Part shown: piece by piece, positions 22,232 through 39,028 of the stretch | Position numbering within the stretch: position 1 is the stretch's first letter | Layout of the letters: every line of letters starts with the position of its first letter | NCBI GenBank assembly: GCA_002712005.1 | Contig: PASP01000014.1 | Location: forward strand, 434,001 to 498,000 | Source: Halobacteriovoraceae bacterium | Lineage (GTDB): Bacteria > Bdellovibrionota > Bacteriovoracia > Bacteriovoracales > Bacteriovoracaceae | DNA length: 64,000 bases | Direction: 5' to 3' | Notes under the pieces: generated by a model | What the model was told of the DNA's origin: nothing | The model's database searches: none | The model's input: only the letters and a program-made list of their open reading frames with translations | Program-made: the position numbers and the translations under genes

Positions 22232-22247
22232 TAATAAATAGGACGGG

Positions 22248-22484
22248 CTAAATCGACTTTCTTAAAGTAGATTTGGCCTTCTTCTTTTGATAGACCATTT
22301 CTTTTTTTTGCTTAAGCATTTGTATGGTCTCAAATACATTTCGTATCGACTTCTGTGAGATCTCACTTTTAATAAGTACTTTTTGTTTTTGGTCATTCTG
22401 ATTTCTATCAGAATTGAGTTTCAACTCTAAAGCAAAAGAATTTTGAGTCATAAATAGGAATAGAGCACTAATAATGAGCTTCAC
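22248..22484 (-). CDS. Small secreted basic protein
   Basis: 78 residues: a signal peptide (MKLIISALFLFMTQNSFA) and a short Lys/Gln/Asn-rich mature part of about 60 residues ending in KKKAKSTLRKSI. No family recognised. It is convergent with the M4 protease gene. Confidence 0.62.
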   Translation of the reverse strand: MKLIISALFLFMTQNSFALELKLNSDRNQNDQKQKVLIKSEISQKSIRNVFETIQMLKQKKEMVYQKKKAKSTLRKSI

Positions 22485-22558
22485 GTATTAAATACCTTTA
22501 ATAATTTGTTTCTACCTAGATACTTGAAATGATACGTTTTGACAATACGAGTTGGAAA

Positions 22559-22972: not shown

Positions 22973-23044
22973 AGTCTATAGAGCATAATAGAATTTCAAA
23001 TGGCCAACAAGAAATAAATATAAGTGGTTGAAAGTAGGGAGAAA

Positions 23045-23284
23045 ATGATAAAAGTAGTTGAGCAAAATAATCAAGTTGTCGAAGAGGTTCTTATGAAGAT
23101 TAAATGGACCCATTCTTTAACTATTCTTAGCTTACTGAGCTTATCTCTTATCTATATTTCCTTTGACCCTAAGGGTTCTAGGGGCCAAGTAGCAGGTAAA
23201 GTCTCTAGAATTCCTGCTTCAACGACTCAAGATCAGAACCCTGATAATCAAAGGGGTGTTCGCTATATACTTCCTCTATGGTAA
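23045..23284 (+). CDS. Small membrane or secreted protein
   Basis: 79 residues from ATG 23045 behind AGGGAGAAA; an internal ATG at 23093 would give a 63-residue product beginning with the hydrophobic segment WTHSLTILSLLSLSLIYISF. The remainder is short, polar and Pro-containing. No family recognised. It lies 130 bp before the pel cluster and is followed by a small hairpin, so it may be transcribed separately. Confidence 0.5.
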   Translation: MIKVVEQNNQVVEEVLMKIKWTHSLTILSLLSLSLIYISFDPKGSRGQVAGKVSRIPASTTQDQNPDNQRGVRYILPLW

Positions 23285-23319
23285 AAGACAGCAATTTCAA
23301 TTAGTTATGTGTTGAATGG

Positions 23320-23336
23320 CAAAGCTTGCTGCTTTG
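23320..23336 (+). terminator. Weak hairpin after the small protein gene
   Basis: CAAAGC-ttgct-GCTTTG, followed by TTTAG. The stem is short and the U-run poor, so termination before the pel cluster is only possible. Confidence 0.35.
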
Positions 23337-23413
23337 TTTAGAGCATAGAAATCCTTTAAAATTAACACTTTAGATCACTCAGATGTCTTTATTTAAAGAA
23401 ATGGGGTTTTGCA

Positions 23414-25474
23414 GTGAGGTTAGGATTTCTATACCAGTCCATTTGGACCATAATTTTTCTCTTCACTCTAAGTGATATTCAAGCCGCTGCTATGAAGCGT
23501 GTTGTTCTTGGTTTTTGGGATTCGACTGAGTACGAATACAAAGATAGCTCTGCCAATCATATTCATCAAAACTTAGAGGTTGTTCTCAACCACTACGGAT
23601 TGAAAGTGGAGTATATTGATGTCGCTAAAGAATTACCAAAAGAGTTATTTCAAGTAGAGAAGTTAAAAAAATATAGGGGAGTTCTTTCTTGGTTTCGTGA
23701 TGATCAAATGAATGATCCTGAAAACTATCTTAAAGTTTTAAAGAATATTAGAAAGGCGAACTTACCCTTCTTGCTTATGGGTGAGTTTGGTTTTTTGATA
23801 GATTCGAGCTCCAAGGGAAAAGAGAAGAAAGAATTCGAGCCTAGCGTTGTCAATAAAGTCCTTAATGATTTTGATCTCGACTTTAAAGGCGATTATTTTG
23901 ATAATCCGATGATTTTAGAGGCAAAGAAACTAGCTTCTCCTCATTGGATAGAGTTTGAAAGAACTTTAGATAATGAATTAAAGTCGGTAAGAGTTGTCAA
24001 CAGAATGGGACCTGGTGAAACATGGTTACAAATTCAAACTCTAGGTGACAAGAGCCAGTCAGATGTAATCTTTGTAAATCCTAAAATTTCCTATGTTCAA
24101 TCGGGTTACGAAATTTTTACGAATCCAATCGATTATAAAAATCAATGGCGAGTAAATCCATTTGAAATAGTTAAGCAAACCTTTTTTAAAAATGGCCTAG
24201 AACTAGCTCCAGATATAACGACACTATATGGAAGTAGAGTTTTTTATACTCATATTGATGGAGATGGATATATCAATGTGAGCCAGGTTGATCATAAAAC
24301 TTATAGCGGGGATATTATAATTAAGGAGATTATTGACCATTATAAGCTTCCCATCATGGTAAGTGTCATAATTGCTGAAGTCTCTTCTAAGTATCTCGGA
24401 AATGCATCCATCGAAGAAAATGTTAGAGAAATGTACAAGCTCCCCTATGTTGAAGGGGGAAGCCATACCTTTACTCATCCTATGAGTTGGGATTTAAATC
24501 CTACTCTGGCAGATAAAAAGATATATTTAAAAGGCGAGGATATAAAGAATCATAAAGGTCCTATCGTTGGCTACCCTTTAAAAGATTATGTCATGAATTA
24601 TGAAACTGAGGTAGTCGGGTCTCTTAATTACATAAATGAAAACTATATGCCAAAAGGAAAGAAAGCGAAGACGTTATTATGGAGTGGCTCTTGTTCTCCT
24701 CCTGAGAAACCATTGGCCTTATTAGATAAAGAAGGCTTTCTCAACATGAATGGAGGTGATGGAAAGTTTGATGGAGTAGACGCTTCGTATACTGGACTTT
24801 CTCCACTTTATCGTATGGTAGGAGGCTATACTCAAGTTTACTCTTCGAATGCCAATGAGAACTTATACACAAATTTATGGGAGGGTCCCTATAGTGGTTT
24901 TAGAGAAGTTATTGAGGCTTTTAAGAATACCGAAAAACCAATTCGAATTAGACCCATAAATATTTATTATCACTTCTATTCAGGCGAGAGGGTTTCATCT
25001 TTAAAAGCATTGAAAGAGACTTACGATTTTTCTTTAAAACAAAAAATAAATCCTATTTTTCCTAGTCTCTATATTGAGATGGTTCATGACTGGAAAACGA
25101 TAGAAATAAACAAAGTTAATTTCGAGCATTATAAAGTTCAGACAAAAGGTAAAGTTAAGACATTTCGAATTGATGAACCTGAAAAGGTTCCAGACTATAA
25201 GAAATCTGTAAATATAATAGGGCACCAGGTAATTAACGAAAGTCTATATGTCTTTTTAGGGAAAGAAACGAATGCTGAAATTTATCTGACAAGCAAGAAG
25301 CAGACTCAACCATACATAAGTGAAGCGACCGTCCTCGTTAAAGATTTCAATAAAAAAGAAATTACAGGGGTAGCTCATTATCCAGGATATATTGAAGTGA
25401 TGAATAAGGATAAGAAGAAACGCTTTGATATATTAAAAACTGGAGAGTTTCGAATTCAATTGGAGTCGATGTGA
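23414..25474 (+). CDS. pelA: PelA-type polysaccharide deacetylase (lacks the hydrolase domain)
   Basis: 686 residues from GTG 23414. A signal peptide (QSIWTIIFLFTLSDIQA) is followed by a Rossmann-like domain (about 30-260) and a polysaccharide-deacetylase domain. The metal-site motif HIDGDG (near 279-284) and GSHTFTHP are the Asp and His motifs of PelA. CSPPEKPLALLDKEGFLNMNGGD and RPINIYYHFYSGERVSSLKAL match the PelA C-terminal region. PelA de-N-acetylates the Pel polymer in the periplasm. In Pseudomonas the same protein also carries an N-terminal glycoside hydrolase; here that domain is absent and a hydrolase-like gene lies at the end of the operon. It overlaps pelB by 4 bp (ATGTGA-type junction). 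Confidence 0.88.
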   Translation: MRLGFLYQSIWTIIFLFTLSDIQAAAMKRVVLGFWDSTEYEYKDSSANHIHQNLEVVLNHYGLKVEYIDVAKELPKELFQVEKLKKYRGVLSWFRDDQMNDPENYLKVLKNIRKANLPFLLMGEFGFLIDSSSKGKEKKEFEPSVVNKVLNDFDLDFKGDYFDNPMILEAKKLASPHWIEFERTLDNELKSVRVVNRMGPGETWLQIQTLGDKSQSDVIFVNPKISYVQSGYEIFTNPIDYKNQWRVNPFEIVKQTFFKNGLELAPDITTLYGSRVFYTHIDGDGYINVSQVDHKTYSGDIIIKEIIDHYKLPIMVSVIIAEVSSKYLGNASIEENVREMYKLPYVEGGSHTFTHPMSWDLNPTLADKKIYLKGEDIKNHKGPIVGYPLKDYVMNYETEVVGSLNYINENYMPKGKKAKTLLWSGSCSPPEKPLALLDKEGFLNMNGGDGKFDGVDASYTGLSPLYRMVGGYTQVYSSNANENLYTNLWEGPYSGFREVIEAFKNTEKPIRIRPINIYYHFYSGERVSSLKALKETYDFSLKQKINPIFPSLYIEMVHDWKTIEINKVNFEHYKVQTKGKVKTFRIDEPEKVPDYKKSVNIIGHQVINESLYVFLGKETNAEIYLTSKKQTQPYISEATVLVKDFNKKEITGVAHYPGYIEVMNKDKKKRFDILKTGEFRIQLESM

Positions 25475-28353
25475 TTTTATTTAATAGGGTTCAGGCCTTC
25501 TTGTTTTTGTTTGTCGTAGTTGGGGTCATTATTCTAACCATTCCGAGTCGAACTAAGTTAGGGATTTTATATTTTAACTCATATCAATATGAAAAAACAT
25601 TAGAATACCTTTCAGAGTCAGAAAGCTTAAAAACGGGAGATGTCTTAGTATTAAAAAAGATTAAAGATTATTTTACTCTTCAAGGAGATATAAAAAGAGC
25701 TCTCGAAGTGATGGAGAAACTTCATACTTTACGTCCACATAATTTGGATTATTTAAAAGAACTTGAGAAATTATCTGATTGGAATCAGCTTCCAGTAAAG
25801 CGTCTCTACTATCAAGAGAAAAGAGCTGAGCTATTGAAAGGAAAGAGTGACAGAGAAAAACTACTTTTAGAAATTGCACAAGGATATAGATATTTACGTG
25901 ATTTTAAAGAAGCTAATCGTGTCTTTCAAAAAATAGAGAATTCTGAAAATAGAATGATTCAAGAACAAATGATTTCTTACTATTTAGCTACAAAACAAGC
26001 TGATAAGGCCATCGAAAGTATTGAGGCCTATAAAAAGAAATTAAAAGATAATAGTGAAGTCCGGTTGAAATATAATATTTATCTATATCAATCCTTTACA
26101 GTATTGGAAGACTATAAACGTGCCATTATTCAAGCCTTCCAGATTTTAGGTATTAATAAACTTGATTCAGTTAATGAAATTCCTAAAGAGGTATATTCAC
26201 TTAGCAAGCAACAGGTGAAAGATAATCTCTATTACTTAGAGGGAATTATTTATCATTATGAAAAACTTGAGTTGCTAGGTAACTCTGAGGAATTAACTCT
26301 CTTTCTTGCTAATACAGTTCCTGTAGATACAGAACTCCAATTTAATCTCGCAGAATTTTGGTTTAGACATAATGATAAATCAAAAGCAAAAAGTAAGTAT
26401 GTAGATATCTTAAAGCGCGATAGATTAAATAGAGAGGAAATGTTGAGCCTCGTAGACCGCTTCTATGATCTAGGGGAGAAGGGGCGTGCTATTGATGCGT
26501 TGAAAAGGCTTGTTAAGCGTTATCCTTTAAATAGGGCATATTGGCAGAGGCTGGGTGATCTCTATGATGAAATAGGGGAAAAGAAAAAGGCATTAGAGGC
26601 TTTTTTAAAACTATTAGAATTGGAAAAAAAGAAAAATCAAACATATATAAGAACTTATCTGAGACAGGGACCTCAGCTTGCCATGAATTCATCCTCAGAT
26701 GATGTTATTTTCATAAAGAAATACCAAAATCTACCTAAATTTAATTCTAGAATTTATCAAATTGAACAACGAATCGTTTATTTATTAAATGAGATTGGTG
26801 ACCCCGAAGAAGTTATTAAAGTCGTGGAGAGGCTTTTAAATGATGATCCCAATTCTTCTGTCCTCTTATCTGCTTTGGCACAAGCCTATTATATGAAGGG
26901 TGATTATAAAAGAGCAGAGAAGTTATTTGAAAGAGTCATTCGTTTAGAGCCTAATCACAAAATGGCACTTGAAGTTCTTTTGGCTAAAGACATAAGAGAG
27001 AAAAACTTTGAGAAGGCCAATGGTAAGATCAAGACACTTGAAAAATTAAGTAACGAAATTAAGAATAGTGAAGAGCTTTATCTTCTAAGCATGAAAGAAG
27101 AAGTTTTCTTTCAAGAGGCGGGGGCAGAATCTAAGTCTTATAAAGAGATATGTCAGGTTATTAATGACTTGAATAGCTCTCAAGCAAAAAATAGCAAGGG
27201 ATCTGTAAATTTTGAGCTTCAAAGTATTAGGTTGAGATGTCTAAGACGAAGAGGCGAGGAAGAGAAGGCTTTTCAATTGAATAAAAGCCTTGTTGCTCAG
27301 TATCCTGAAGAGTTGATATTAAGAGAACAGTTAGCTTATCTGTATTTGGATCGTGGAGATGTCGAAAGCGCTAAGAAAGAATTGGATGTACTCATTTTAA
27401 AGTCGGACCAGCCCGAGATACAGTACAAAGCTTTAAATGAGTATTATAATTCGAGCTTGCTTTCTGAAAAAAGAAAGAATGCATGGCGATTGGTTACTGA
27501 CAATTATCATTTGTGGACAAGTGAATTTTCTTTTAGCCTCATGAGTATAGAAGTAGCAAAACTCTTTAATGATTTTGCTATTGGCCTGGGAGAAGAATTC
27601 TATTTATTGAATAAGGGTGGAAATGAAAAAATCAACTATAATGAACTCTTTTTTGAATATCGGTTGAGTCTAAATCAACTTATACGTCTTCAGCTGGGTA
27701 TTTCTACATTAGACAAAGAAGTAAGTGAGAATTTTGGATTCCAATATATTTATGGCGACACCACAAGTTACTTAAGCTTAGAATTCAATAATTCTATGCC
27801 TTCTTATCAAACACTATCCCTATTTCAAGATAGGGGAGCATTTGAAAGAGGATTCGTTGGTTATTATGAAAGATTCTTTAATCGCCTTAACTACCTTGCG
27901 ACCTCTTTAGATATCTTTGAAGCGAACGTCTCAGATGGAAAGTCTATGGGAATAAGGTCACGCTTCGAATTTTCCCGTAGGCTAAATGTAGAGAGTTGTT
28001 ATGAAGTGGGGGCTTTAGTTGGGTATTCGAATATCACGAAGTCGAGTCCATTGCTCAATCTTGGTTACTTGAAGAATTCAGTACCCTATTATCTTCTTAT
28101 GAAATGTAATAACCGACATCTTCGATCTCTAGAGGGACAAAAGTGGATATACGGATTAGACCTTGGGATAGGAGGAGACTTAGGAAGGGGAATTGGTTTT
28201 GTGCATTCCAATATGTTTAGAGCAGAATTGTCTTACTTGTTTAGCCCTTATAACAGTGTAAAATTATACGGAGAACATTATACTGAAGCTTTGAATGTAT
28301 CTAGGGGAGCGACCTCAATGATTGGAGTTCAAGGACAGTTCTTTTTATTTTGA
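25471..28353 (+). CDS. pelB: PelB-like TPR/outer-membrane porin for Pel export
   Basis: 960 residues from GTG 25471. An N-terminal membrane helix (VQAFLFLFVVVGVIILTI) is followed by about 600 residues of TPR-like helical repeats, for example SVLLSALAQAYYMKGDYKRA then EKLFERVIRLEPNHKMALEV. The C-terminal 280 residues have alternating beta-barrel strands and end in VQGQFFLF, with a terminal Phe like an outer-membrane beta-signal. This is the PelB layout: TPR scaffold in the periplasm plus export barrel. In Pseudomonas PelB is about 1190 residues, so this one is shorter in the TPR part. Confidence 0.88.
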   Translation: MILFNRVQAFLFLFVVVGVIILTIPSRTKLGILYFNSYQYEKTLEYLSESESLKTGDVLVLKKIKDYFTLQGDIKRALEVMEKLHTLRPHNLDYLKELEKLSDWNQLPVKRLYYQEKRAELLKGKSDREKLLLEIAQGYRYLRDFKEANRVFQKIENSENRMIQEQMISYYLATKQADKAIESIEAYKKKLKDNSEVRLKYNIYLYQSFTVLEDYKRAIIQAFQILGINKLDSVNEIPKEVYSLSKQQVKDNLYYLEGIIYHYEKLELLGNSEELTLFLANTVPVDTELQFNLAEFWFRHNDKSKAKSKYVDILKRDRLNREEMLSLVDRFYDLGEKGRAIDALKRLVKRYPLNRAYWQRLGDLYDEIGEKKKALEAFLKLLELEKKKNQTYIRTYLRQGPQLAMNSSSDDVIFIKKYQNLPKFNSRIYQIEQRIVYLLNEIGDPEEVIKVVERLLNDDPNSSVLLSALAQAYYMKGDYKRAEKLFERVIRLEPNHKMALEVLLAKDIREKNFEKANGKIKTLEKLSNEIKNSEELYLLSMKEEVFFQEAGAESKSYKEICQVINDLNSSQAKNSKGSVNFELQSIRLRCLRRRGEEEKAFQLNKSLVAQYPEELILREQLAYLYLDRGDVESAKKELDVLILKSDQPEIQYKALNEYYNSSLLSEKRKNAWRLVTDNYHLWTSEFSFSLMSIEVAKLFNDFAIGLGEEFYLLNKGGNEKINYNELFFEYRLSLNQLIRLQLGISTLDKEVSENFGFQYIYGDTTSYLSLEFNNSMPSYQTLSLFQDRGAFERGFVGYYERFFNRLNYLATSLDIFEANVSDGKSMGIRSRFEFSRRLNVESCYEVGALVGYSNITKSSPLLNLGYLKNSVPYYLLMKCNNRHLRSLEGQKWIYGLDLGIGGDLGRGIGFVHSNMFRAELSYLFSPYNSVKLYGEHYTEALNVSRGATSMIGVQGQFFLF

Positions 28354-28375
28354 TATACATAACATTGGGTTTGAA

Positions 28376-28753
28376 TTGGAAAAGAAGAAAATTTTAATTG
28401 TCGACGATAGCCATGAATTTTCCTTTCTCGTTGTTTCTTTAATGAAGTTTCATGATGATATTGAAATCGTGAGTGAGACTTCATCATTGAAAGCTAGTGA
28501 AATCGTTGAAAAGAGTGCATTTGATTTATTTATTATTGATTATTTGATGGATGAGCTTAATGGCCTTGAACTCATCGAAAAAATTAAAAGTACGAGTTTA
28601 AATAAAGATAGAAAGTGCATCCTATTAACAGCTAAAGACTTAAGTGATTCAGAGTTAACTAAGCTTAATGAATTTAATGGTCTTTACACGAGAAAGCCTA
28701 TTATGCCGAATGAGTTCTATAAGCAAATCATTGATATTATGAATAACGAATAA
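28376..28753 (+). CDS. Stand-alone response-regulator receiver protein inside the pel operon
   Basis: A complete CheY-like receiver: acid pair in ILIVDDSHEF, phospho-Asp in LFIIDYLMDELNG, Thr in LLTAKD, and Lys in TRKPIMP. The start is probably TTG 28376; an in-frame TTG at 28322 overlapping pelB is the alternative. No output domain follows. It sits between pelB and pelD, a place where Pseudomonas has pelC. A receiver is not part of the standard Pel set, so it may couple a phosphorelay to Pel production. The receiver fold is clear; the role is inferred. Confidence 0.85.
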   Translation: MEKKKILIVDDSHEFSFLVVSLMKFHDDIEIVSETSSLKASEIVEKSAFDLFIIDYLMDELNGLELIEKIKSTSLNKDRKCILLTAKDLSDSELTKLNEFNGLYTRKPIMPNEFYKQIIDIMNNE

Positions 28754-28767
28754 AAGACGTTGAGAAA

Positions 28768-30159
28768 GTGGAAGAAAAGAATCAATACTTAAAAGATTTT
28801 ATGATTTTTACCGTTGCAGTAGCAGTGGTTGTTTCTCTACATTATTTTTATAATCCTAATGATCTTGCCATGAAAGAGATCAACCCCAATCCGATCTTTG
28901 TACTAAGCGTTTTATTTTCCTGCTATAGAGGTTTTAAATTTTCAATATTTTGCTCTTCCTTTTCAGCATTGCTTTATTTTTCTCTACTTACCATTCAAGT
29001 AGATTTTCAAGAAGTGGAATCAATTTTTAGTCTAGAGTTTCTCATGGTGCCTATATTGATGATTTTAATCTCATTGGTTGTCGGTGATATTCAACAAAGA
29101 ACCATTAATAGACTCAATCAATGGAGAGAGAAAGTACAAGTTAGAGATAAGGTCTATGAAAAACTAAAGTTAAAACAAGAAGCTCAAGATAAAGAAATTC
29201 ATTTTTTGAAAAAGAAAATTGTAACAAGGCTTGATACAATTAAAGAACTTCACGATTCAGCTGCTAAATTAAATAGTTTAAGTGTTGAACACTTGACCCA
29301 TAATTTTATAGAAGTTGTGAAAACAAGAGCCCATGTAAGTAAAGCATTTTTTTATAATTTAGATGAGCAAAAAGGTGAGTACATTTTTATCGCTCCTTCT
29401 ACTGTAAGTCAGGAGGAGGTAGATCAATTTGATTTGAATAGTTACGTTTGTCAAAAAGCGATAGATACTGGGCGGCTTGTAACAATTAAAGAAATAGCAA
29501 AGGAATTGACGCTTAAGGATGCAAATCATTCTGAAGCATTAAAGAAAGAGCCTTTGATATCTCTTCCTATATATAATGCCGGAAAAATATATGGCCTCTT
29601 TGTGATTCTAGAGATGCCATTTTTAGAATTTATTCCTGAGAATATTAATATTATTAAAGAATTGGCTCTTTGGTATGAAGATTCTCTTCTAAAGGCGATA
29701 GAGTATGAAGAGTCTGGAATTAATGCAGAAGCAGATATTAAATATAAAGCCTATAAATATGATTATTTTTTACGAAGGGCAAGTGAAGAAGCAGAGTTAT
29801 CCCAAAGGTACGGAATACCTTTAAATATTATGAAAGTCGTATTTGCTAATTATGATACGGCCAGTGAGTACAGAAAGCGAATGCTTAAAAAATTCATTGT
29901 AGAGTTTTTAAGACTTAATTTAAAAAGTCGTGATTCTGTATGTTTAAGCAATGTGGAGAGTGAACTCTTAATCATCATTTTAGATGATCATACAGAAGTG
30001 AAAAATAAAGCAAAGAAGCTGGCGTTGGAACTTGATAAGTTTAATCTTGTGGTATCTGACACTGATGAAAGATTAATTGTCGAGTTTCAAATCTCTTCTG
30101 AAAACTCTGTTAAAGCAAATAGAATTAAAGAATTAGATAGTTTTGAGAGAGTTTCTTAA
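28768..30159 (+). CDS. pelD: PelD-like c-di-GMP receptor (membrane, GAF, degenerate GGDEF)
   Basis: 463 residues from GTG 28768. Four hydrophobic segments in the first 110 residues are followed by a coiled coil, a GAF-like domain (about 175-310, with LISLPIYNAGKIYGLFVILE) and a C-terminal degenerate GGDEF. The catalytic GGDEF position reads NVESE (395-399), so it cannot make c-di-GMP. The I-site position, RxxD in Pseudomonas PelD, reads K386-S-R-D389. PelD binds c-di-GMP and activates polymer synthesis together with PelE and PelF. It overlaps pelE by one base. Confidence 0.88.
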   Translation: MEEKNQYLKDFMIFTVAVAVVVSLHYFYNPNDLAMKEINPNPIFVLSVLFSCYRGFKFSIFCSSFSALLYFSLLTIQVDFQEVESIFSLEFLMVPILMILISLVVGDIQQRTINRLNQWREKVQVRDKVYEKLKLKQEAQDKEIHFLKKKIVTRLDTIKELHDSAAKLNSLSVEHLTHNFIEVVKTRAHVSKAFFYNLDEQKGEYIFIAPSTVSQEEVDQFDLNSYVCQKAIDTGRLVTIKEIAKELTLKDANHSEALKKEPLISLPIYNAGKIYGLFVILEMPFLEFIPENINIIKELALWYEDSLLKAIEYEESGINAEADIKYKAYKYDYFLRRASEEAELSQRYGIPLNIMKVVFANYDTASEYRKRMLKKFIVEFLRLNLKSRDSVCLSNVESELLIIILDDHTEVKNKAKKLALELDKFNLVVSDTDERLIVEFQISSENSVKANRIKELDSFERVS

Positions 30160-31181
30160 TGATTAAGCTTGTTGCCTCCATACTATTGAAAATAGTGATC
30201 CTCTATTTATTAGGGGGCTTAGATATCTCTGTTAAGTTCTTTGTCTTAGTTGCCAATCCTCTATCGGCTCTTATTCTTGCATACTCTCTCTATAAGAATG
30301 AATTGGAGAAGGAGAAGGTCTTTCTTATTCTCTCCCTAGATGTATTTATCCCTATTGTTGGTTTTTTAGCGATAGGCTTATTTCTGATATTGACACCTCT
30401 TTTTCGATTGATGAAAAGTGAAGAACATTCTGATGTCTATGATCTACCATTGGGAAAGGAAGACTTTGAGGACTATTCCACGATAAAAAAAACATTGCTT
30501 GAAGAAGATGAAGTGCATAAAGAAGGAGCCGGGTTTAAGTCATTAGAAGTTGAACCTTATATGGAAGTTTTTAATGGAGATGATCTCGCTAAAAAAGTTA
30601 ACGCCATTGAAAAATTAACAGAAATTTCTGATAGAAAGAGTATTGAAATTCTAAAGAAATGTCTGGATAGAGATGATTACGAAGTTCGTTATTTTGCCAA
30701 CGGGGCTCTCGGTAAAATTGAACAAGATATGATGACTAAAATTGAGTTAGCCTCTGATAATATTTCAAGACATCCTACAGATCACATCGCGTATAATATG
30801 AGAGCAGTAGCTTATTTAGATGCCTATTTATTAGGAATATTAGATAAAACGTTAGAGGAACATTTCTTAGAATGCGCATTGATGGACTATTTAACTTCAC
30901 TTAGTCTTAATCAAGAACAGTCCTATTTATATGTTAAAATTACTCAAATCTACTTGAAGTTAGAGCGTTATGAAGACCTTGTTTCGGTTGCTAAAATGGC
31001 ACTTGCTGCAGATATTAAAGAAGAGGATGAAGTTAAAATCAAATTCTATCTTGCGGAGGCAAGTTATAATAGTCGAGAAATCCTTAGCTTGATTGACTAC
31101 TGTAATGAAATTAAGGATTTTGAAACAGGATTTCAACTTATTAATGATAGAGTAGATTGGTGGACTAGTGACTCAGTATGA
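30159..31181 (+). CDS. pelE: PelE-like membrane/TPR protein
   Basis: 340 residues. Two to three hydrophobic helices lie in the first 80 residues (VASILLKIVILYLLGG and a second pair), followed by a cytoplasmic acidic linker, a HEAT-like stretch (KVNAIEKLTEISDRKSIEIL, YEVRYFANGALGKIE) and TPR-like helices. This matches the PelE arrangement of paired TM helices plus a TPR domain; PelE bridges PelD and PelF at the inner membrane. It overlaps pelD by 1 bp and the HEAT-repeat gene by 14 bp. Sequence similarity cannot be measured here; the call rests on architecture and position. Confidence 0.8.
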   Translation: MIKLVASILLKIVILYLLGGLDISVKFFVLVANPLSALILAYSLYKNELEKEKVFLILSLDVFIPIVGFLAIGLFLILTPLFRLMKSEEHSDVYDLPLGKEDFEDYSTIKKTLLEEDEVHKEGAGFKSLEVEPYMEVFNGDDLAKKVNAIEKLTEISDRKSIEILKKCLDRDDYEVRYFANGALGKIEQDMMTKIELASDNISRHPTDHIAYNMRAVAYLDAYLLGILDKTLEEHFLECALMDYLTSLSLNQEQSYLYVKITQIYLKLERYEDLVSVAKMALAADIKEEDEVKIKFYLAEASYNSREILSLIDYCNEIKDFETGFQLINDRVDWWTSDSV

Positions 31182-33129
31182 TCATTACCTGAAATTTCTT
31201 GATCTACTTAATTCCAATGTTTGGAATGAAAGGTCCCGTGCCACCGTAGAATTAAAAAAAATAAATGATGCAGAAATTCTTTATAAGCTATTTAAAGTAA
31301 TTGAAGATAGAAATGATGATAACTTAAGATTTAACTTTTTGATCCTACTCGAAACCCTCTTAAGTTCTCCAAGGCATGAGGTATCAGGTACCGCCCTTTT
31401 TGGACTCGTCTTATGGAATGGTAAAAGTGGAAGTCATTCTTTAAATAATAAGTCTTATCAGCTTATCCAAGATTATATTAAATCAAGTAAGGTACTACGG
31501 TATATGAAAATAAAGTCTATCCGTTATGCCTGGGGTAGATTACCTAGATCAAAAAGAGATATTTTATTAGAAGTTATATCTAAAAATCATTTAAAAGAAC
31601 TTTCTAATATTGTTCTTACCTGTTTTCAAATACGCGATGATGACCTTTGGATAAAGGCCATCAATACTTTAATCAAATTTAAAGATAAGAGAGGGAACCG
31701 ATATATTAAAAAAATATTGCTGTCAGGTTCGAAAAATCAAGATTTATTGAATACTGCAATACGTGCGATTGGCACTTTAGGGAGTTTTTACGACTATAAG
31801 CTCCTTAAACCTTATTTTGAATCTTCACATTTGAAAATTCAAATCTCTACCATTCGTTCTTACTCTAAAATATTGGGTGCATTTTCAGTTAGGAGACTAG
31901 AGAAAATATTCTTAGAAAATGAAAACGACCGCATCAAATTAGAGGTACTTTCTCGATTAGGTAAAATAAATCATAAAAAAAGTTGCACTGCTCTTATTCG
32001 GTTCTTACATCTTGGATTAAAGGGAGATGTAGGTCTTCATGTAGATTGGGCTCTTCATAATTGTGAAAACCGTATTAAGATTCCTCTGTTGATCGCTTCA
32101 TTTCATGAACAAGATGATAAAGGAAAAGTAAGAGTTCTGAATTTCTTCACTGATGTATATGATTTTAGACTAGAAGACTTTATTTTGAATGTTCTTAGCT
32201 CTGATCAACCGGATATTATTCAATTGATGACTTTAAATCTTTGCTCTGGATATCCTTCTGATAAGATAAAAAAACTCTTAGAAGACTTTATCTTTGAATC
32301 AACAGGTCTTAAAAGCTATACAGCTCTTTTAGAGCTGTATCAGATCAATAAATTAGAGGATGAAAAGATTTTGTTTCGGTTCTTTGAACAGAATCCATCT
32401 CTCGATTATTTATCTCACCATGTGATCCTTAAGAAATTATCAGAGGGAAGAATAAGTGATGAATTACAGCTAAAAGCGCTTCCTTATCTGGAGAATATTT
32501 TAACTCACGGAAGAGTAGATCTTGTAAACCTTGTTTTTGATTGTCTCTTATATAATGCCAATGAAAGTTTAATTGAGAAAGGGTTGGAGGTCGCTAAAAA
32601 TACTTCGTTAGATGTGATTAGAGATCATGCGATCAAAGTCTTCGCAAAGCTCATTAAAACAAATAATCGATATTTGAAAATTCTAGAGCCTCTATTTCAC
32701 GATAAATATTTTTTGATAGAACTCTCTTCTGGAGATGTTTCTAAGAAGTTTATTTTTGAGCTTTCTTCGTTTCTCATGAAGCGAGATGATATTGATTACA
32801 CTCTATTCTTTAACCATACTGTAAGTTTAATAAAAGATAGAGACCAAGAGTTATTTAAAGGCATAAAGAGTGATGAATTGCTTAACGAGCTTTATCGATT
32901 TTGGATTTCTTATGATCTTAGGTTTTCAGAAGAAACGATAGAAAGAATGATTAACCAATACTACTCGATGTTGAATGAGGAAAATAAAATAAGCTTCCTA
33001 AAGAAACTTAGTCAAAATGCACACATTCATCATATGAGCTTCTTCTATAAAGAAGTTATTCTTAGGAAAGAAGCTCTTGCTCCACTTGTTAATCAATATA
33101 TTAGATGTATTCACGAGGAGGTGTTATGA
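31168..33129 (+). CDS. HEAT-repeat protein inside the pel operon (non-canonical)
   Basis: 653 residues from GTG 31168, overlapping pelE by 14 bp and pelF by 4 bp. It has no signal peptide or membrane segment and consists of tandem HEAT/armadillo-like helix pairs throughout, for example DLWIKAINTLIKFKDKRGNRYIKKIL and LLNTAIRAIGTLGSFYDYKLL. The standard Pel operon (pelABCDEFG) has no such gene. HEAT solenoids are protein-interaction scaffolds, and PelE here carries a short HEAT-like stretch as well, so it may scaffold the cytoplasmic PelD-PelE-PelF-PelG complex. That is inference from position and fold. Confidence 0.8.
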   Translation: MTQYDHYLKFLDLLNSNVWNERSRATVELKKINDAEILYKLFKVIEDRNDDNLRFNFLILLETLLSSPRHEVSGTALFGLVLWNGKSGSHSLNNKSYQLIQDYIKSSKVLRYMKIKSIRYAWGRLPRSKRDILLEVISKNHLKELSNIVLTCFQIRDDDLWIKAINTLIKFKDKRGNRYIKKILLSGSKNQDLLNTAIRAIGTLGSFYDYKLLKPYFESSHLKIQISTIRSYSKILGAFSVRRLEKIFLENENDRIKLEVLSRLGKINHKKSCTALIRFLHLGLKGDVGLHVDWALHNCENRIKIPLLIASFHEQDDKGKVRVLNFFTDVYDFRLEDFILNVLSSDQPDIIQLMTLNLCSGYPSDKIKKLLEDFIFESTGLKSYTALLELYQINKLEDEKILFRFFEQNPSLDYLSHHVILKKLSEGRISDELQLKALPYLENILTHGRVDLVNLVFDCLLYNANESLIEKGLEVAKNTSLDVIRDHAIKVFAKLIKTNNRYLKILEPLFHDKYFLIELSSGDVSKKFIFELSSFLMKRDDIDYTLFFNHTVSLIKDRDQELFKGIKSDELLNELYRFWISYDLRFSEETIERMINQYYSMLNEENKISFLKKLSQNAHIHHMSFFYKEVILRKEALAPLVNQYIRCIHEEVL

Positions 33130-34622
33130 GTGATGTATGCTTAATCCTTGAAGGTACATATCCCTATGTTACAGGGGGAGTTTCAACTTGTGTTTATCAA
33201 CTTATTAAAAATACACCTTTTATAAATTATTCAATCCTCTATATTGGTGCGACTTCTCATGAAAATGATGAATACCGTTATCCTATTCCAGATAATGTTA
33301 AATTGATTAAAGAAGTCGAGTTATTTGACTATAAGGTAGATGATGAACTACCAAATAAGAATATTGAGCTTGATCTAGAGCTACTCTTAAAATTCCATAA
33401 TGCACCGAGAGAGAGAAAAGCAGAACTTTTTGGAGCAGTATATAATGAGGTCATAAAACCTCTAGATGATAGCTTTAATCCCTTTGATATACTAAAGAGC
33501 AAACAAGCTTGGAATATGCTTTCCAATTATTATAAAAATAAATTTAAAGACCAAGAAGCTCCATCTTTTATTGACTACTTTTATACCTGGCGCTTTACCC
33601 ATTATCCTATTTTTAAAATATTAACGACAGAATTACCAAAGGCTAAATTATATCACGCTCTCTCTACCGGATACGCAGGTCTTCTTGGGGCAGTGGCCAA
33701 AGTACAAGGAAACAATGCTTTCATGCTCACTGAACATGGAATCTACAGTCATGAGAGAGAAATTGAGATTTATCAAGCGGATAGGATCTTTAACGCTGAA
33801 ACAGATCTACAGGCCAAGAGTAATATTTCTACATTCAAAGAGTGGTGGATTAAAATGTTTCATTTCATGGGACAAGTTGCCTATCAGCAAGCTGATCTTA
33901 TTACCACCCTATATGAAGGAAATAAGGAAAAACAAATTCGCTATGGAGCCGAAGCTGACAAAATAAAAATCATCCCAAATGGGATAGTCTATGAAAGCTT
34001 TAGTTCAATCACTAAAAAAAGTAAAAAAGAGAATGAAGTCCATATTGCGCTCGTCGGAAGAGTCGTACCAATAAAAGATATAAAAACTTTTATCAAAGCT
34101 GCATCGGGGTTACGCAGACTTCTTGATGATCATATCAATCTTAAAGTGAGTATTCTTGGTCCTTATGATGAAGATCCTGAATATTACGAAGAGTGTAAAA
34201 AACTTGTCAGCTTTCTAAATCTTGAAAATGTAATTGAATTCACAGGTAAAGTTAATGTTAAAGAATACTATGGTGTGATTGATACATTAGTATTAAGTTC
34301 AATAAGTGAAGGACAACCTATGGTTATTCTTGAGGCTTTTGCTGCAGCAGTCCCCTGTGTAAGTACTGATGTAGGTAGTTGTAGTGAACTTATTTATGGA
34401 ATGTCTGATGAAGATAGGGCATTGGGGGCAGCTGGTGAAGTTGTTCCCTTTGGTAAGCCTGACTTGTTAGCACAGGCTCTATTTAATGTTGTTTCTAGTC
34501 CAGATGATTTAATGAAAATGGGAAAAGTAGCCCAAATTAGAGCTAAAAAGTATTATCGTGAAGATATCACTGTGAAGAATTATTTAAGATCTTATAATAA
34601 ATTATTAGGCTCTACTGATTAG
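33126..34622 (+). CDS. pelF: PelF-like glycosyltransferase (GT4)
   Basis: 498 residues from ATG 33126 behind GAGGAGG; a start at 33105 would precede that site. It has the PelF N-terminus (CLILEGTYPYVTGGVSTCVYQLI) and the GT-B, GT4 C-terminal half with KIIPNGI, VALVGRVVPIKDIKTFIKA and SISEGQPMVILEAFAA (the EX7E motif). PelF is the cytoplasmic polymerase of Pel, using UDP-GalNAc/UDP-GlcNAc type donors. ATGA overlap with the HEAT gene; pelG follows after 9 bp. Confidence 0.95.
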   Translation: MSDVCLILEGTYPYVTGGVSTCVYQLIKNTPFINYSILYIGATSHENDEYRYPIPDNVKLIKEVELFDYKVDDELPNKNIELDLELLLKFHNAPRERKAELFGAVYNEVIKPLDDSFNPFDILKSKQAWNMLSNYYKNKFKDQEAPSFIDYFYTWRFTHYPIFKILTTELPKAKLYHALSTGYAGLLGAVAKVQGNNAFMLTEHGIYSHEREIEIYQADRIFNAETDLQAKSNISTFKEWWIKMFHFMGQVAYQQADLITTLYEGNKEKQIRYGAEADKIKIIPNGIVYESFSSITKKSKKENEVHIALVGRVVPIKDIKTFIKAASGLRRLLDDHINLKVSILGPYDEDPEYYEECKKLVSFLNLENVIEFTGKVNVKEYYGVIDTLVLSSISEGQPMVILEAFAAAVPCVSTDVGSCSELIYGMSDEDRALGAAGEVVPFGKPDLLAQALFNVVSSPDDLMKMGKVAQIRAKKYYREDITVKNYLRSYNKLLGSTD

Positions 34623-34631
34623 GAGATATTT

Positions 34632-36023
34632 GTGGCCGGAATAGGTTTTAGGTTAACAAAATATTTTTCTGGAAAAAATGTTTGGGATAATCTCAAAGGG
34701 ACGATCTATTCTACCGTCATTTCCTCCGGGCCTTGGCTCATATCAGTTCTGTCTGTCTTCTTTGTTGGTCTCTATGCTCAACATGGCCTTAATCGCCATG
34801 ATTTATATGTTTTTAAATGTATTATTAGTTATACCTTTGCGGCTTCCTTGTTACTTTTTGGAGCCTTTGAAATGCCATTGACTCGTTATCTCGCAGATAA
34901 GTTGTATATGGCAGACATCTCAACATTTAGAGGTGTCTTCATAAATATTGTGACTATCGCTGTAATAACTTCCGGAACATTAGGATATTTCTTCTACGCC
35001 TTTTTTGATTGGGGGATCATTCTTAGAATGATCTGTGTGGGTTTACTCGCTGCAATTTTGATTGTCTGGTCGAGTATGATTTTCTTATCAGCATCAAAAA
35101 ATTACGTAAAAATTGTAATATCGTTTCTGATTGGGGGAGCAAGTTCATTTGTTTTTTCAATTGTTCTAGGTAAACAATTTGCACTTATTGGTTATATTGG
35201 AGGTTACGCTCTAGGACAGATCCTAACTGCAATTCTCTTAGCCCAGAATGTTTTTAGTGAATACAGTGACTTTGAATATTTTTCTTTAGAATATTTAACC
35301 TATTTTAGTAAATACAAAAAACTTATATTCGTAGGCATGTTCTATTATCTGGGGATATGGGTAGATAAATTTATCTTTTGGTATTCAGAAGTAGGAGATC
35401 ATGTAGAAGGCCTTTTTTATACTAATCAATATTACGACACGGCTATGTTCTTATCGTATTTGACTATCGTGCCTTCCTTTGCTGTTTTTATGGTACAAGT
35501 TGAAACTGATTTCTATATTAAATACACTTATTTTTATAGAGCAATTGAAGATAAATATAATTTAAAATTTTTAGAAAATGGCATCGAAGAAATTACAATT
35601 TCTCTTAAAAAAACAATTGTTAATTTGATTAAGATTCAAACCTTTGTAAGTGTGATTTGTTGGTATTTTTCTCAAGAAATTGTTGAATTATTATATCTTC
35701 CCTCGCTTATGGAACCCGTTTTTAAGTATGGTGTGATAGGTGCTTTTTTGCAGATTCTTTTTCTGATTTCTAATATTGTTCTTCTTTATTTTGAAGAGAG
35801 AAAGCCCGTTCTAATTAATTATCTTATCTTCTTAATATCAAATCTTGTCTTAAGTGGGATTACTGTGGAAATGGGAGTTCGATATCATGGCCTAGGATAT
35901 GTCGTAAGTTCGCTTCTTACTTTGATTTCTTCTTTCTATTTTCTTAACGAAACCCTTAAGAATATTGACTACAAAACCTTTATGTCCCAAAAGATGACGA
36001 GTGAAAACTTTATTACTAATTAA
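34632..36023 (+). CDS. pelG: PelG-like polysaccharide transporter (MOP/flippase fold)
   Basis: 463 residues from GTG 34632 behind AGGAGA. It starts with AGIGFRLTKYF as PelG does and has about 12 hydrophobic segments over its length, like the Wzx/MOP superfamily. PelG works with PelD, PelE and PelF to carry the growing polymer across the inner membrane. The reading frame overlaps the next gene by 23 bp. Confidence 0.92.
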   Translation: MAGIGFRLTKYFSGKNVWDNLKGTIYSTVISSGPWLISVLSVFFVGLYAQHGLNRHDLYVFKCIISYTFAASLLLFGAFEMPLTRYLADKLYMADISTFRGVFINIVTIAVITSGTLGYFFYAFFDWGIILRMICVGLLAAILIVWSSMIFLSASKNYVKIVISFLIGGASSFVFSIVLGKQFALIGYIGGYALGQILTAILLAQNVFSEYSDFEYFSLEYLTYFSKYKKLIFVGMFYYLGIWVDKFIFWYSEVGDHVEGLFYTNQYYDTAMFLSYLTIVPSFAVFMVQVETDFYIKYTYFYRAIEDKYNLKFLENGIEEITISLKKTIVNLIKIQTFVSVICWYFSQEIVELLYLPSLMEPVFKYGVIGAFLQILFLISNIVLLYFEERKPVLINYLIFLISNLVLSGITVEMGVRYHGLGYVVSSLLTLISSFYFLNETLKNIDYKTFMSQKMTSENFITN

Positions 36024-36894
36024 TTTACTTATTTTTTTATCTGGAATGATCTCCTGTACACACTTAAAGGATAGGAATGTGGACGAGTTTAAGGTTTGGG
36101 GTTATCAGCTTCAAGGTTATAATAGTCCTTATGACTATAGAAGAATTTACGAAACCCAAAATACTCTTTGGGTAATTGATCGCGATTATAAAGATAGAAA
36201 AGTTGATTCGTCTAAAATAATGCGTTTGAAAGAGAATGGAAATCTGATTATCAGTTATTTCTCTATAGGTGAAGCAGAAGACTATAGAGATTATTATAAG
36301 AATATGCCTCGTGATTTAGTAGAGCACGAAAATAAAAATTGGGAAGGCAATTTTAAAGTAAAGTACTGGGATAGTCGATGGCATAAAATTATGCTTCGTT
36401 ATCTTGATGGCATATTGGACTCTGGTTTTGACGGCGTCTATCTCGATATTGTAGATGCCTTCGATTATTATCCTGAAGAAATGAAAAAACAAAGGGCCAA
36501 TCAAATGCAGGGTTTGATTGCTCTAATAAGTAAGCATGCAAAACGTAAAAATCCACAATTTAAAATTATTCAACAAAATGGTAGCTCCATTATTCATTAT
36601 CTCGATGATCCGACGAAATGGTATTCTCTAATAGATGGTCTTGCTATTGAGTCCATGTTCTTTTCGGGGTCCAAAGCAATGAATAATGCTTTCAAGTTAG
36701 ATGACTCCATTATGAGTACACTAGGCTCTTACCGCGATCAAAATATTCCCATTTTTAGTGTGGAATATATATCTGATGATGCATTAATAAATAAATATGC
36801 TCAGCTTGCAAAAGAATATAAGGTAATTCCTCTGACTTCAGATAGAGAATTAATGGGAAGTTTAAAGTTTAGCTCTGAGATCTTTTCGAATTAA
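36001..36894 (+). CDS. GH114/GH166-like glycoside hydrolase lipoprotein
   Basis: 297 residues from GTG 36001, overlapping pelG by 23 bp. The lipobox IFLSGMISC places it on a lipid anchor. The mature protein has a TIM-barrel family pattern: VWGYQLQGYN, LWVIDRDY, NLIISYFSIGEAEDYRDYY, FDGVYLDIVDAFDYY and AIESMF. These match the TM1410/endo-alpha-1,4-polygalactosaminidase group to which the PelA hydrolase domain is related. Acidic residues of SIGEAED and YLDIVD are candidates for catalysis. It is the likely counterpart of the missing N-terminal domain of PelA, cutting Pel in the periplasm. Confidence 0.85.
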   Translation: MKTLLLINLLIFLSGMISCTHLKDRNVDEFKVWGYQLQGYNSPYDYRRIYETQNTLWVIDRDYKDRKVDSSKIMRLKENGNLIISYFSIGEAEDYRDYYKNMPRDLVEHENKNWEGNFKVKYWDSRWHKIMLRYLDGILDSGFDGVYLDIVDAFDYYPEEMKKQRANQMQGLIALISKHAKRKNPQFKIIQQNGSSIIHYLDDPTKWYSLIDGLAIESMFFSGSKAMNNAFKLDDSIMSTLGSYRDQNIPIFSVEYISDDALINKYAQLAKEYKVIPLTSDRELMGSLKFSSEIFSN

Positions 36895-37334
36895 AATTCA
36901 GCGTTAAAATCTTTATTCAAGGTTTGAATTTCAATATGACCTTGAATTTTATCTTCATTTTTAAGACGATACTCTATATTAATCAAAAGAGTATCATTTA
37001 ATATCTTTTCGAGTGCTTTATCCTTTAATGCAAAAGTACATATTTTTTTTCCTTTTTTCTTTTTAGCTTTAGCAAAGATGAGACCATTTACTCCTCTTGT
37101 TTGTTGAGGAGCCGTAAGACGGGTGATTTTATAGTAGCAAGTCGCTTGAGAGTTTTCTTTCTCATCAGCCTTCAGTTCCAGTAGATATTGTTTTTCATAG
37201 CTTCGTACTTGAAACTGAATTAAGGATTCTATTGAGGGTAATTTGAATTCTCCTTTTACTAAGACAGGTTCTTCATTTGCATAAAGATTTAGACTGAGTA
37301 AATTAAATAGGAGAAAGAGGATAATCTTATTCAT
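36891..37334 (-). CDS. Hypothetical secreted protein
   Basis: 147 residues with signal peptide (MNKIILFLLFNLLSLNLYA). The mature part looks beta-rich, with ATCYYKITRL and KKKKGKKICTFALKDKALEKI. No family recognised. It overlaps the arginine-deiminase gene upstream by 4 bp (same operon) and its stop overlaps the convergent glycosidase stop by 4 bp. Confidence 0.7.
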   Translation of the reverse strand: MNKIILFLLFNLLSLNLYANEEPVLVKGEFKLPSIESLIQFQVRSYEKQYLLELKADEKENSQATCYYKITRLTAPQQTRGVNGLIFAKAKKKKGKKICTFALKDKALEKILNDTLLINIEYRLKNEDKIQGHIEIQTLNKDFNAEF

Positions 37335-39028
37335 TGCTTACATATCCTTGCTGTATTCGTTCCACAATGTACTTGTCCATTTAGCAGGTGATAGCCAAGT
37401 CCATGGACAAAGGTGGCACCAACTCCAAGTTTCGTAAGTTCATCTTCCATATATTGATCGAAGGGACGAAAATAAGTTCTTGGCATAATTATGGTAGAAG
37501 TATTGTTCTGATTTGTATGGACGACACCATTGACTAGGTCGGGCGCATAAGCAACTCCACCTCGAAAGAAAACTGGAACTTCAACAACGGGGGGAGCGGA
37601 ACATCCACTGGTCTGTGCTAATTCTCTCAAGAGAGCATCTTTATTCCTATTCATTACATCTTCAATAGAAGGAGGACCTTCAAGATTTTCTCTTTTAAGG
37701 ATTTGATATTCATCTGAATCCACAAATGTTGTTACTGATTGATCATCAATACAATTACGTTCATAGACTTCGTTAGTTTTTCCCTCACTTATCTCCTCAA
37801 AGGCTCCATCATAAAGAAGTTCGTTATAACTCACTTCTTCGCAATCGATATCCTCAGAAGGAGTATCGTCATCGCCACCAAATAGTTTCATTGCTCCTGC
37901 ATGAGCTTTAGGGATAAGAAGGTTTTGAATATCTTGAATAAATCCGGCATCACCTTCATTTTCTTTTTCAAGATTGATTTGATTGGCAGTCGACTCCATA
38001 AGTTCAAAAGCCTTTCTTGGGCTGGCCAAGAGAAGGGCAAAGTTACAGGGGGCAGGTTGATTGGTTTGCACAAAGTTAATAATCTCATCTACGTGACCAA
38101 CACTTAGAAAAGATGTGTCGAGATCTAAAAGTTTATTGCCGTTGGCTTCAAGAGATTCTCTTTGAACCTTTTGAGCTTGAGACTCAAAAGGGACTTCTAG
38201 ACTGCCATTTGTATTGTACTTGGGAAATCCATCCGTTTGAATGGTTCCGCGATACATTGTCCCTCCAGGCATGGTCTCTAAATTTCCACCACTATTTAAA
38301 CTATTGTAGTCTGCATTATTGGGATCAACCATATCAGGGGGGATAAGGTAAGGAACATTACAACTCTTTGCGATGGCACAGGTAAGCCTAGTGCTTAAAT
38401 CCCTTCCTTGTTCGGTATGATGTTCAAGTTGATAGAGGGCCGGCTTTCCATTTAAGGTTCCAAATTCAAATGAATCTTGCATCCAGCGCTCAACAGAAGG
38501 CATGGCCTCTACTTGAACAATATTAACTTGTGCCTGATTTAATTTTTTGGTTAGTTCCTCGTCTTCTTTCAAGTTATCAATATATCCTCTCGGGATAACC
38601 AAGTTGAAACGTCCAGCTGGGTTATCTTTTCTATACTCGTCGATTAGGTTTTGAAGAAAAGCTGAGTTATTGCCCATATACATAGCGAATATTCCGCCAC
38701 TGGGAAATGTATGATCGAGTCCTCGAAAGTCTGTGCCTGGTTGGGGGCAGTTGGGAATATCAATTCCTGAATTTTCAACTTCAGCATGACTAGCTACACA
38801 TTGGTTAACAGTAGCAAGATCTAATATATCTTTAAGGGCATCATCCATTTTTCCACTACAGCCATTTAAAGAGTCATCTTCTTCACATTCTTCGACTGTG
38901 CCAAAGCCATTATTAACACTATTGAGTGTTCCAAGGTCTTGTGCATGTTCGGTAATACCTAGAGAGTAAATATTGATCACGAATAAAAAATAGAGATAAA
39001 AGGTCGCTCTAGCTTTCAAAGGGTCCAC
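37331..39028 (-). CDS. Secreted protein-arginine deiminase (PAD-family)
   Basis: 565 residues from GTG 39028 (TTG 39019, six bases after AGGTGG, is also possible). It begins with a secretion signal (FYLYFLFVINIYSLG). The PAD catalytic set is present in order: Asp185 (ERWMQDSFEFG), a GGNLE motif (247-251), His312 and Asp314 (VGHVDEI), and the nucleophile Cys555 (GQVHCGTN). These correspond to D350, H471, D473 and C645 of human PAD4. The family converts protein arginine to citrulline and needs calcium in animals. Length is near vertebrate catalytic plus middle regions, but the N-terminal immunoglobulin-like domains are not recognisable. A role on prey or own envelope proteins is inference. Confidence 0.88.
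   Translation of the reverse strand: MDPLKARATFYLYFLFVINIYSLGITEHAQDLGTLNSVNNGFGTVEECEEDDSLNGCSGKMDDALKDILDLATVNQCVASHAEVENSGIDIPNCPQPGTDFRGLDHTFPSGGIFAMYMGNNSAFLQNLIDEYRKDNPAGRFNLVIPRGYIDNLKEDEELTKKLNQAQVNIVQVEAMPSVERWMQDSFEFGTLNGKPALYQLEHHTEQGRDLSTRLTCAIAKSCNVPYLIPPDMVDPNNADYNSLNSGGNLETMPGGTMYRGTIQTDGFPKYNTNGSLEVPFESQAQKVQRESLEANGNKLLDLDTSFLSVGHVDEIINFVQTNQPAPCNFALLLASPRKAFELMESTANQINLEKENEGDAGFIQDIQNLLIPKAHAGAMKLFGGDDDTPSEDIDCEEVSYNELLYDGAFEEISEGKTNEVYERNCIDDQSVTTFVDSDEYQILKRENLEGPPSIEDVMNRNKDALLRELAQTSGCSAPPVVEVPVFFRGGVAYAPDLVNGVVHTNQNNTSTIIMPRTYFRPFDQYMEDELTKLGVGATFVHGLGYHLLNGQVHCGTNTARICKQ

What the first reader, a model, noticed from the sequence alone, without database searches (positions are those of the whole stretch)
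23414..36894. Variant Pel exopolysaccharide operon with a split PelA, an added receiver and an added HEAT protein
Seen in sequence: nine tightly linked genes, several with overlapping ends. PelA deacetylase (no hydrolase domain), PelB, receiver, PelD, PelE, HEAT, PelF, PelG and a GH114/GH166-like lipoprotein are recognised. Known: Pseudomonas pelABCDEFG has hydrolase and deacetylase in one PelA, has PelC, and has no receiver or HEAT gene. Here the two enzymatic halves sit at opposite ends of the operon and no small PelC-like lipoprotein is visible. Inference: a re-engineered Pel machine that may be steered by phosphorelay and by c-di-GMP, in what looks like a predatory lineage.
Basis: partly seen in the sequence, partly recalled or inferred. 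Interest (0 to 1): 0.8.

Follow-up and report, generated by a model that had tools for sequence, protein, structure and literature searches.

The report
Pel operon with receiver and HEAT genes
This is a gene set for making and exporting a sticky, Pel-type biofilm sugar in an uncultured relative of predatory bacteria, and it belongs to an apparently undescribed subtype, found in several bacterial phyla, in which two extra genes (a signal-receiver protein and a helical scaffold protein) have joined the core machine as a pair.

Summary
Nine genes (23414-36894, + strand) form one tight operon: PelA-type deacetylase, PelB, receiver, PelD, PelE, HEAT solenoid, PelF, PelG and a GH191-family lipoprotein hydrolase. 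PelF, PelG and PelA match strongly; PelD, PelE and PelB are divergent but recognisable. The genome has one PelG, one PelA, no fused PelA and no detectable PelC.

It is not a one-off. The order recurs in about 15 genera of the window's family. The receiver (directly before pelD) and the HEAT gene (between pelE and pelF) recur together elsewhere in the phylum and in Myxococcota/"Deltaproteobacteria", Auribacterota and unclassified lineages; Omnitrophota has the HEAT gene (receiver slot off contig). Where both slots were visible, 24 loci had both (one receiver unproven), one HEAT only, 51 neither. I found no description of it.

"Split PelA" is not a literal fission: the hydrolase is GH191, not PelA's GH166. 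Deacetylase-only PelA is already known from Gram-positives. PelC occurs in some sister lineages with the same receiver/HEAT pair, so its absence here looks like a loss.

PelD's c-di-GMP site is altered in the window and close relatives, all with intact receivers; one relative adds a hybrid kinase/Hpt gene to the operon. Receiver control of the synthase is plausible but unproven.

The parts
23414..25474 (+). PelA-type polysaccharide deacetylase (CE21), no GH166 domain; short alpha/beta region before the deacetylase retained
   Evidence: phmmer to PelA 9cgy residues 440-835 E 6e-60; family profile E 2e-100, N-terminal part weakly aligned to PelA 257-364, i.e. after the hydrolase. Metal/catalytic residues kept: H280, D282, D284, H351, H355, E482, H520
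25471..28353 (+). PelB-type outer-membrane porin: N-terminal hydrophobic segment, TPR solenoid, C-terminal 16-strand beta-barrel (about residues 672-959)
   Evidence: TPR families; AlphaFold2 model pLDDT 84 with 16 strands; fold matches include cellulose exporter BcsC
28376..28753 (+). stand-alone receiver (CheY-like) protein, all phospho-acceptor residues present; ORF as listed opens at TTG 28322
   Evidence: PF00072 E 2.6e-13; acidic pair, acceptor Asp, Thr and Lys all present; same slot in relatives
28768..30159 (+). PelD: N-terminal transmembrane segments, GAF, degenerate GGDEF; c-di-GMP site altered (K386..D389, K417 in place of R367..D370, R402)
   Evidence: family profile without canonical seeds hits PelD 4dmz E 7.6e-8; alignment of the RxxD columns
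30159..31181 (+). PelE: N-terminal transmembrane segments plus cytoplasmic HEAT/TPR-like repeats
   Evidence: canonical PelE profile E 1.6e-8; HEAT_2 and TPR_17 weak; hydropathy
31168..33129 (+). HEAT-repeat solenoid protein, 653 aa, no membrane segment, predicted cytoplasmic
   Evidence: HEAT_2 E 8e-8; AlphaFold2 all-helical solenoid pLDDT 89; best folds are HEAT/ARM scaffolds such as SF3B1, CAND1, karyopherins
33126..34622 (+). PelF GT4 glycosyltransferase (polymerase)
   Evidence: NF038011 E 1.2e-137; start ATG 33126 behind AGGAGG
34632..36023 (+). PelG inner-membrane exporter
   Evidence: PF16933 E 1.6e-120; the only PelG in the genome
36001..36894 (+). GH191-family (TM1410-like) alpha-galactosaminidase-type hydrolase, probable lipoprotein; catalytic D149 and E217 present
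   Evidence: TIGR01370 E 1.6e-50 (just under its cut-off), PF03537 E 1e-29; TM1410 structure E 1.4e-27 against PelA hydrolase 1e-4; residues (PMC12054363)

Best explanation
A Pel-type exopolysaccharide synthesis and export machine of a distinct subtype. PelF polymerises a GalNAc-like chain and PelG/PelD/PelE move it across the inner membrane. PelA deacetylates it in the periplasm and PelB exports it through a 16-strand barrel without a PelC ring; the GH191 lipoprotein trims it (these steps are inferred from homology). The HEAT solenoid is a cytoplasmic scaffold that joins the membrane unit (PelE/PelD) to PelF, and the receiver protein docks on that PelD/PelE/HEAT/PelF complex as its signal-input subunit. 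In the window and near relatives I think phosphorylation of the receiver has partly taken over the gating role that c-di-GMP binding to PelD has elsewhere. Shown: gene content, order, the co-occurrence of the two extra genes, intact receiver residues, altered PelD site. Inferred: protein contacts and gating.
For: Core Pel proteins identified. Where both slots are visible, receiver and HEAT are a pair: 24 both (one receiver, L091, by size only), 1 HEAT only, 51 neither, 0 receiver only (L050 added by hand because its PelF is broken). Slots are fixed: receiver before pelD, HEAT between pelE and pelF, across several phyla. Flanking genes differ between relatives, so the operon behaves as a unit. 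HEAT has no membrane segment and folds as a scaffold. Window PelD has K386/D389/K417 at positions where R367A, D370A or R402A abolish c-di-GMP binding in P. aeruginosa. Sister loci L035, L037, L097, L031 have lost RxxD outright and L034 has K for R; all six keep intact receivers. One of them, L031, carries a hybrid histidine kinase with receiver and weak Hpt match plus an HD-domain gene, in overlapping frames running into pelA. PelA and GH191 moved together to an adjacent pair in G036 and G038.
Against: No experiment and no complex prediction shows any contact. Receivers are degenerate in L027, L030, L033, L053 and missing in L036 while PelD keeps RxxD, so phosphorylation cannot be required throughout. 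The either/or pattern is not significant (Fisher p 0.13; independent pairs uninformative), and L072 has lost both. R to K is conservative, so the window's PelD may still bind c-di-GMP. No kinase gene lies in the window's operon. Polymer identity is assumed.
Confidence: 0.55

Rival explanations
1. The receiver is a structural adaptor rather than a phospho-switch: it and the HEAT protein form a fixed part of the synthase complex, and c-di-GMP bound to PelD remains the main signal.
For: Receivers without phospho-acceptor residues are kept in the same slot in L027, L030, L033, L053, L072 and L124, and RxxD is kept in most REC/HEAT loci.
Against: Most receivers, the window's included, keep the complete acceptor set; PelD of the window clade is altered at the binding residues; one locus adds a hybrid kinase.
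Confidence: 0.3
2. The two genes are passengers with no role in Pel synthesis, carried along in an otherwise ordinary pel operon.
For: Canonical pel works without them; HEAT sequences are only about 15-25% identical.
Against: Near-perfect co-occurrence and fixed slots across phyla, overlapping reading frames with pelE and pelF.
Confidence: 0.05
3. The machine makes a polymer other than Pel, and the PelA/GH191 pair acts on that other alpha-linked hexosamine chain.
For: PelD, PelE and PelB are very divergent, PelC is absent, and the hydrolase is GH191, not GH166.
Against: PelF and PelG score far above family cut-offs; all known CE21 active-site residues are present; characterised GH191 enzymes cut alpha-galactosamine polymers (PMC12054363); GalE-like genes exist in the genome and one lies next to the operon in L031.
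Confidence: 0.15
4. PelC is present but too diverged or displaced to be seen.
For: PelC evolves fast; the profile rests on four sequences; the LpoB-type gene at G000:C12:24383 shows that such folds occur in the genome.
Against: The profile finds PelC in three f4 genomes (two were its seeds) and in dozens of unseeded canonical loci, but none in the window's genome at E<=10 and none convincing in 12 other genomes of the family; no space for a gene between pelB and the receiver; the neighbouring small protein is not PelC-like.
Confidence: 0.2

Closest known systems
Pseudomonas aeruginosa pelABCDEFG
   Same: PelA deacetylase, TPR-porin PelB, PelD, PelE, PelF and PelG, with B-D-E-F-G in the same order
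   Different: Fused GH166 hydrolase in PelA, PelC ring, intact PelD c-di-GMP site, no receiver, no HEAT gene
Gram-positive pelDE-A(DA)-FG operons (Bacillus cereus; PMC7112168, PMC13254593)
   Same: Deacetylase-only PelA with a separate hydrolase gene
   Different: No PelB; gene order differs; no receiver or HEAT gene described in the passages read
Burkholderiales pel loci with an extra hydrolase after pelG (e.g. L023 Paraburkholderia graminis)
   Same: Stand-alone galactosaminidase-type gene directly after pelG
   Different: PelA still carries its own GH166; PelC present; no receiver or HEAT
CAZy GH191 (T. maritima TM1410 and Env-GH191)
   Same: Sequence family and catalytic Asp/Glu
   Different: Known from isolated enzymes; the paper's text does not place them in a pel operon

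Membership tests
Pel exopolysaccharide operon | PelF GT4 synthase | tested here: met
   NF038011 460 bits, cut-off 100
Pel exopolysaccharide operon | PelG exporter | tested here: met
   PF16933 403 bits, cut-off 29
Pel exopolysaccharide operon | PelA CE21 deacetylase with active-site residues | tested here: met
   E 6e-60 to 9cgy; H/D/D/H/H/E/H conserved
Pel exopolysaccharide operon | PelA with fused GH166 hydrolase (Gram-negative type) | tested here: not met
   No hydrolase domain; PelA and GH114-type matches in the genome are single, separate genes
Pel exopolysaccharide operon | PelB: TPR plus 16-strand barrel | tested here: met
   Model with TPR solenoid and 16 strands; a canonical PelB sequence profile gave no hit to it
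Pel exopolysaccharide operon | PelC lipoprotein (Gram-negative hallmark) | tested here: not met
   No profile hit in the genome; none at any pel locus of the family; present in f4 relatives L050 and L051
Pel exopolysaccharide operon | PelD GAF/GGDEF receptor with RxxD c-di-GMP site | tested here: inconclusive
   Architecture supported; RxxD is KxxD and R402 is K in the window; binding not testable here
Pel exopolysaccharide operon | PelE inner-membrane protein | tested here: met
   Canonical PelE profile E 1.6e-8; N-terminal membrane segments
Pel exopolysaccharide operon | Product is alpha-1,4 GalNAc/GalN polymer | not testable with these tools
   Needs chemistry
GH191 | Similarity to TM1410 with catalytic Asp/Glu | tested here: met
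   E 1.4e-27; D149 and E217
GH166 (PelA hydrolase) | Closest to PelA hydrolase domain | tested here: not met
   PelA E 1e-4 against TM1410 1e-27
Two-component receiver (CheY-like) | Acidic pair, acceptor Asp, Thr/Ser, Lys | tested here: met
   All present in the window protein

The most novel reading that the evidence does not exclude
A widespread Pel subtype whose synthase is gated by a dedicated receiver docked through a HEAT scaffold, so that polymer output is switched by phosphorelay and, in the window's clade, no longer by c-di-GMP.
Probability: 0.25. Interest if true: 0.75.

Novelty: new variant of a known kind. Interest (0 to 1): 0.58.

Why it matters
Pel is a textbook case of a biofilm polymer switched on after translation by c-di-GMP. 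A subtype that almost always carries a receiver before pelD and a scaffold before pelF, with PelD's c-di-GMP site altered in some members, offers natural material to ask whether the synthase can be switched by phosphorylation instead. It also makes testable how Pel crosses the outer membrane without the PelC ring, described as essential in Pseudomonas (PMC12141448), and why deacetylase and hydrolase travel together as separate genes. It gives a two-gene marker for finding such operons, and a matrix polymer to look for in Bacteriovoracaceae, relatives of predatory bacteria.

Tried and rejected
Literal fission of PelA: rejected because the hydrolase is GH191. A second, canonical pel operon elsewhere in the genome: none. 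PelC in neighbouring small protein 36891-37334: no similarity; the LpoB-type gene elsewhere is unlinked and was not found by the PelC profile. Strict either/or between receiver integrity and PelD RxxD: suggestive within Bdellovibrionota (RxxD lost in 0 of 5 with degenerate or missing receiver, 6 of 14 with intact receiver) but not significant and broken by L072. KSB1 loci L059-L063 with receiver-type genes near pelF looked like the same system, but in L059 these are an ordinary hybrid histidine kinase and neighbours, not the receiver/HEAT pair. Fold search with HEAT and PelB models gave only generic solenoid and TPR matches besides BcsC. Centring whole-genome searches on Myxococcota or Omnitrophota was not possible.

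Full report
What is there. The nine ORFs reported lie at the stated coordinates on the + strand and are joined by overlaps or very short gaps. PelF's real start is ATG 33126 behind an AGGAGG, overlapping the HEAT stop codon by four bases. The receiver probably starts at TTG 28376, because homologues begin a few residues before the KKILIV motif. Identity is firm for PelA deacetylase (9cgy, E 6e-60), PelF (NF038011, E 1e-137), PelG (PF16933, E 2e-120) and the TM1410/GH191 hydrolase (E 1e-27). It is adequate for PelD (family profile made without canonical seeds hits solved PelD at 8e-8) and PelE (canonical profile E 2e-8). For PelB it rests on TPRs and a model with a 16-strand barrel, the strand number stated for PelB, BcsC and PgaA in PMC12141448. 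The genome (G000, 97.5% complete) holds one PelG, one PelA-type protein and one GH114/GH191-type protein, all in this operon.

PelA and the hydrolase. The PelA protein lacks the GH166 domain but keeps the short alpha/beta region that follows it and every active-site residue listed for CE21 (PMC12022489). The separate hydrolase is GH191, with the catalytic Asp and Glu of PMC12054363 at D149 and E217. PelA has therefore not been cut in two; a different galactosaminidase family supplies the hydrolase. In G036 and G038 both genes have left the operon and sit next to each other elsewhere, in opposite orientation, which argues that they work together. Deacetylase-only PelA is known in Gram-positives (PMC7112168, PMC13254593) and occurs in several other phyla here.

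Survey. 18 of 129 genomes of the order carry PelG over the cut-off. In about 15 genera of the family the order pelA-pelB-REC-pelD-pelE-HEAT-pelF-pelG-GH191 is kept, with local exceptions and some loci cut by contig ends: L025 and L026 lack pelA and GH191 at the locus, L028 is rearranged, and the receiver is absent in L036. The genes on either side differ between relatives, so the operon behaves as a unit. Two further families of the phylum have the core, and in f4 (L050, L051) a PelC gene sits between pelB and the receiver. Among 80 named loci found by PelF similarity, the receiver/HEAT pair appears in Deltaproteobacteria/Myxococcota (L061, L070), Auribacterota (L072) and unclassified bacteria (L069, L076, the latter with PelC). 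L058 (Omnitrophota) and L067 have HEAT with the receiver slot not visible; L124 and L131 have HEAT with a degenerate receiver; L091 (Bacteroidetes) has a weak HEAT match and an unproven receiver. It is in none of the Pseudomonas, Burkholderiales or Pseudoalteromonas loci. Counting loci where both slots are visible gives 24 with both, 1 HEAT only, 51 neither, 0 receiver only (with L050 added by hand because its pelF is broken). The pair clusters on the PelF tree (4 changes against 24 in shuffles); related loci are not independent, so the Fisher p of 7e-19 should not be taken literally.

The two extra proteins. The HEAT protein has no membrane segment and is modelled with high confidence as a helical solenoid resembling eukaryotic HEAT/ARM scaffolds. 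The receiver has the full acceptor set in the window and most relatives, but degenerate receivers are kept in the same slot in L027, L030, L033, L053, L072 and L124. A structural role therefore seems general, and a phosphorylation role is possible where the residues survive.

PelD. In P. aeruginosa, R367A, D370A and R402A abolish c-di-GMP binding and pellicle formation (PMC2170427). The window has K386, D389 and K417 at these columns. L035, L037, L097 and L031 have lost the motif and L034 has K for R; all six have intact receivers. The five loci with degenerate or missing receivers in the phylum all keep RxxD. This is suggestive only: Fisher p 0.13, no independent-pair support, and L072 has lost both. 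In L031 a hybrid histidine kinase with a C-terminal receiver and a weak Hpt match, an HD-domain protein and a GalE-like gene precede pelA on the same strand with overlapping frames. That is the best hint that phosphorelay feeds this operon in some species.

PelC. No PelC was found in the genome by profile (the same profile works in f4 genomes, and in unseeded canonical loci). There is no space for it at the locus, and the nearest small protein is unrelated. Because PelC is present in sister lineages with the same pair, loss in the window's family is the simplest reading. The barrel with its own TPR solenoid resembles BcsC/PgaA, which work without such a ring (PMC12141448).

Literature. Text searches combining HEAT repeat, receiver or two-component terms with Pel gene names returned no description of this arrangement, and the large operon survey PMC7112194 does not mention HEAT, receiver or response regulator. 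Only open-licence papers were searched.

Verdict. A real, new variant of the Pel system, defined by a receiver/HEAT gene pair. The signalling role is inferred, not shown.

Noticed in passing
window 22559-22972 (-): Stand-alone receiver-like protein divergent from pelA, matching the FleQ N-terminal domain (PF06490 E 9e-6); FleQ is a known regulator of pel in Pseudomonas (own knowledge). No counterpart was seen at the relatives' loci.
   Followed up: partly
L031 13997-17262 (-): Hybrid histidine kinase with receiver and weak Hpt match, plus an HD-domain protein, in overlapping frames running into pelA; a GalE-like gene precedes them.
   Followed up: yes
L158 7791-10768 and L159 7382-10364: pelA and GH191 moved together, away from the rest of the operon, as an adjacent pair in opposite orientation.
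   Followed up: yes
L025 16147-17004, L026 16080-16928: In place of GH191 a lipoprotein resembling MepA-type murein endopeptidase (GHNSHQTGLDVDIW motif, by eye) follows pelG.
   Followed up: no
window 37331-39028 (-): Protein-arginine-deiminase family protein (PF03068 E 2e-21) with a probable signal peptide, next to the operon.
   Followed up: no
window 20363-22231 (+): Thermolysin-type M4 metallopeptidase upstream of the operon.
   Followed up: no
window 39753-40805 (+): Probably secreted leucine-rich-repeat protein (by eye).
   Followed up: no
window 22001-36000: G+C is 32-36% across the operon against about 35-41% around it, which may reflect acquisition or composition of the family.
   Followed up: no
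L053 8040-10569: PelB appears split into a TPR protein and a TPR/barrel protein in family f3; a similar split is seen in L028.
   Followed up: no
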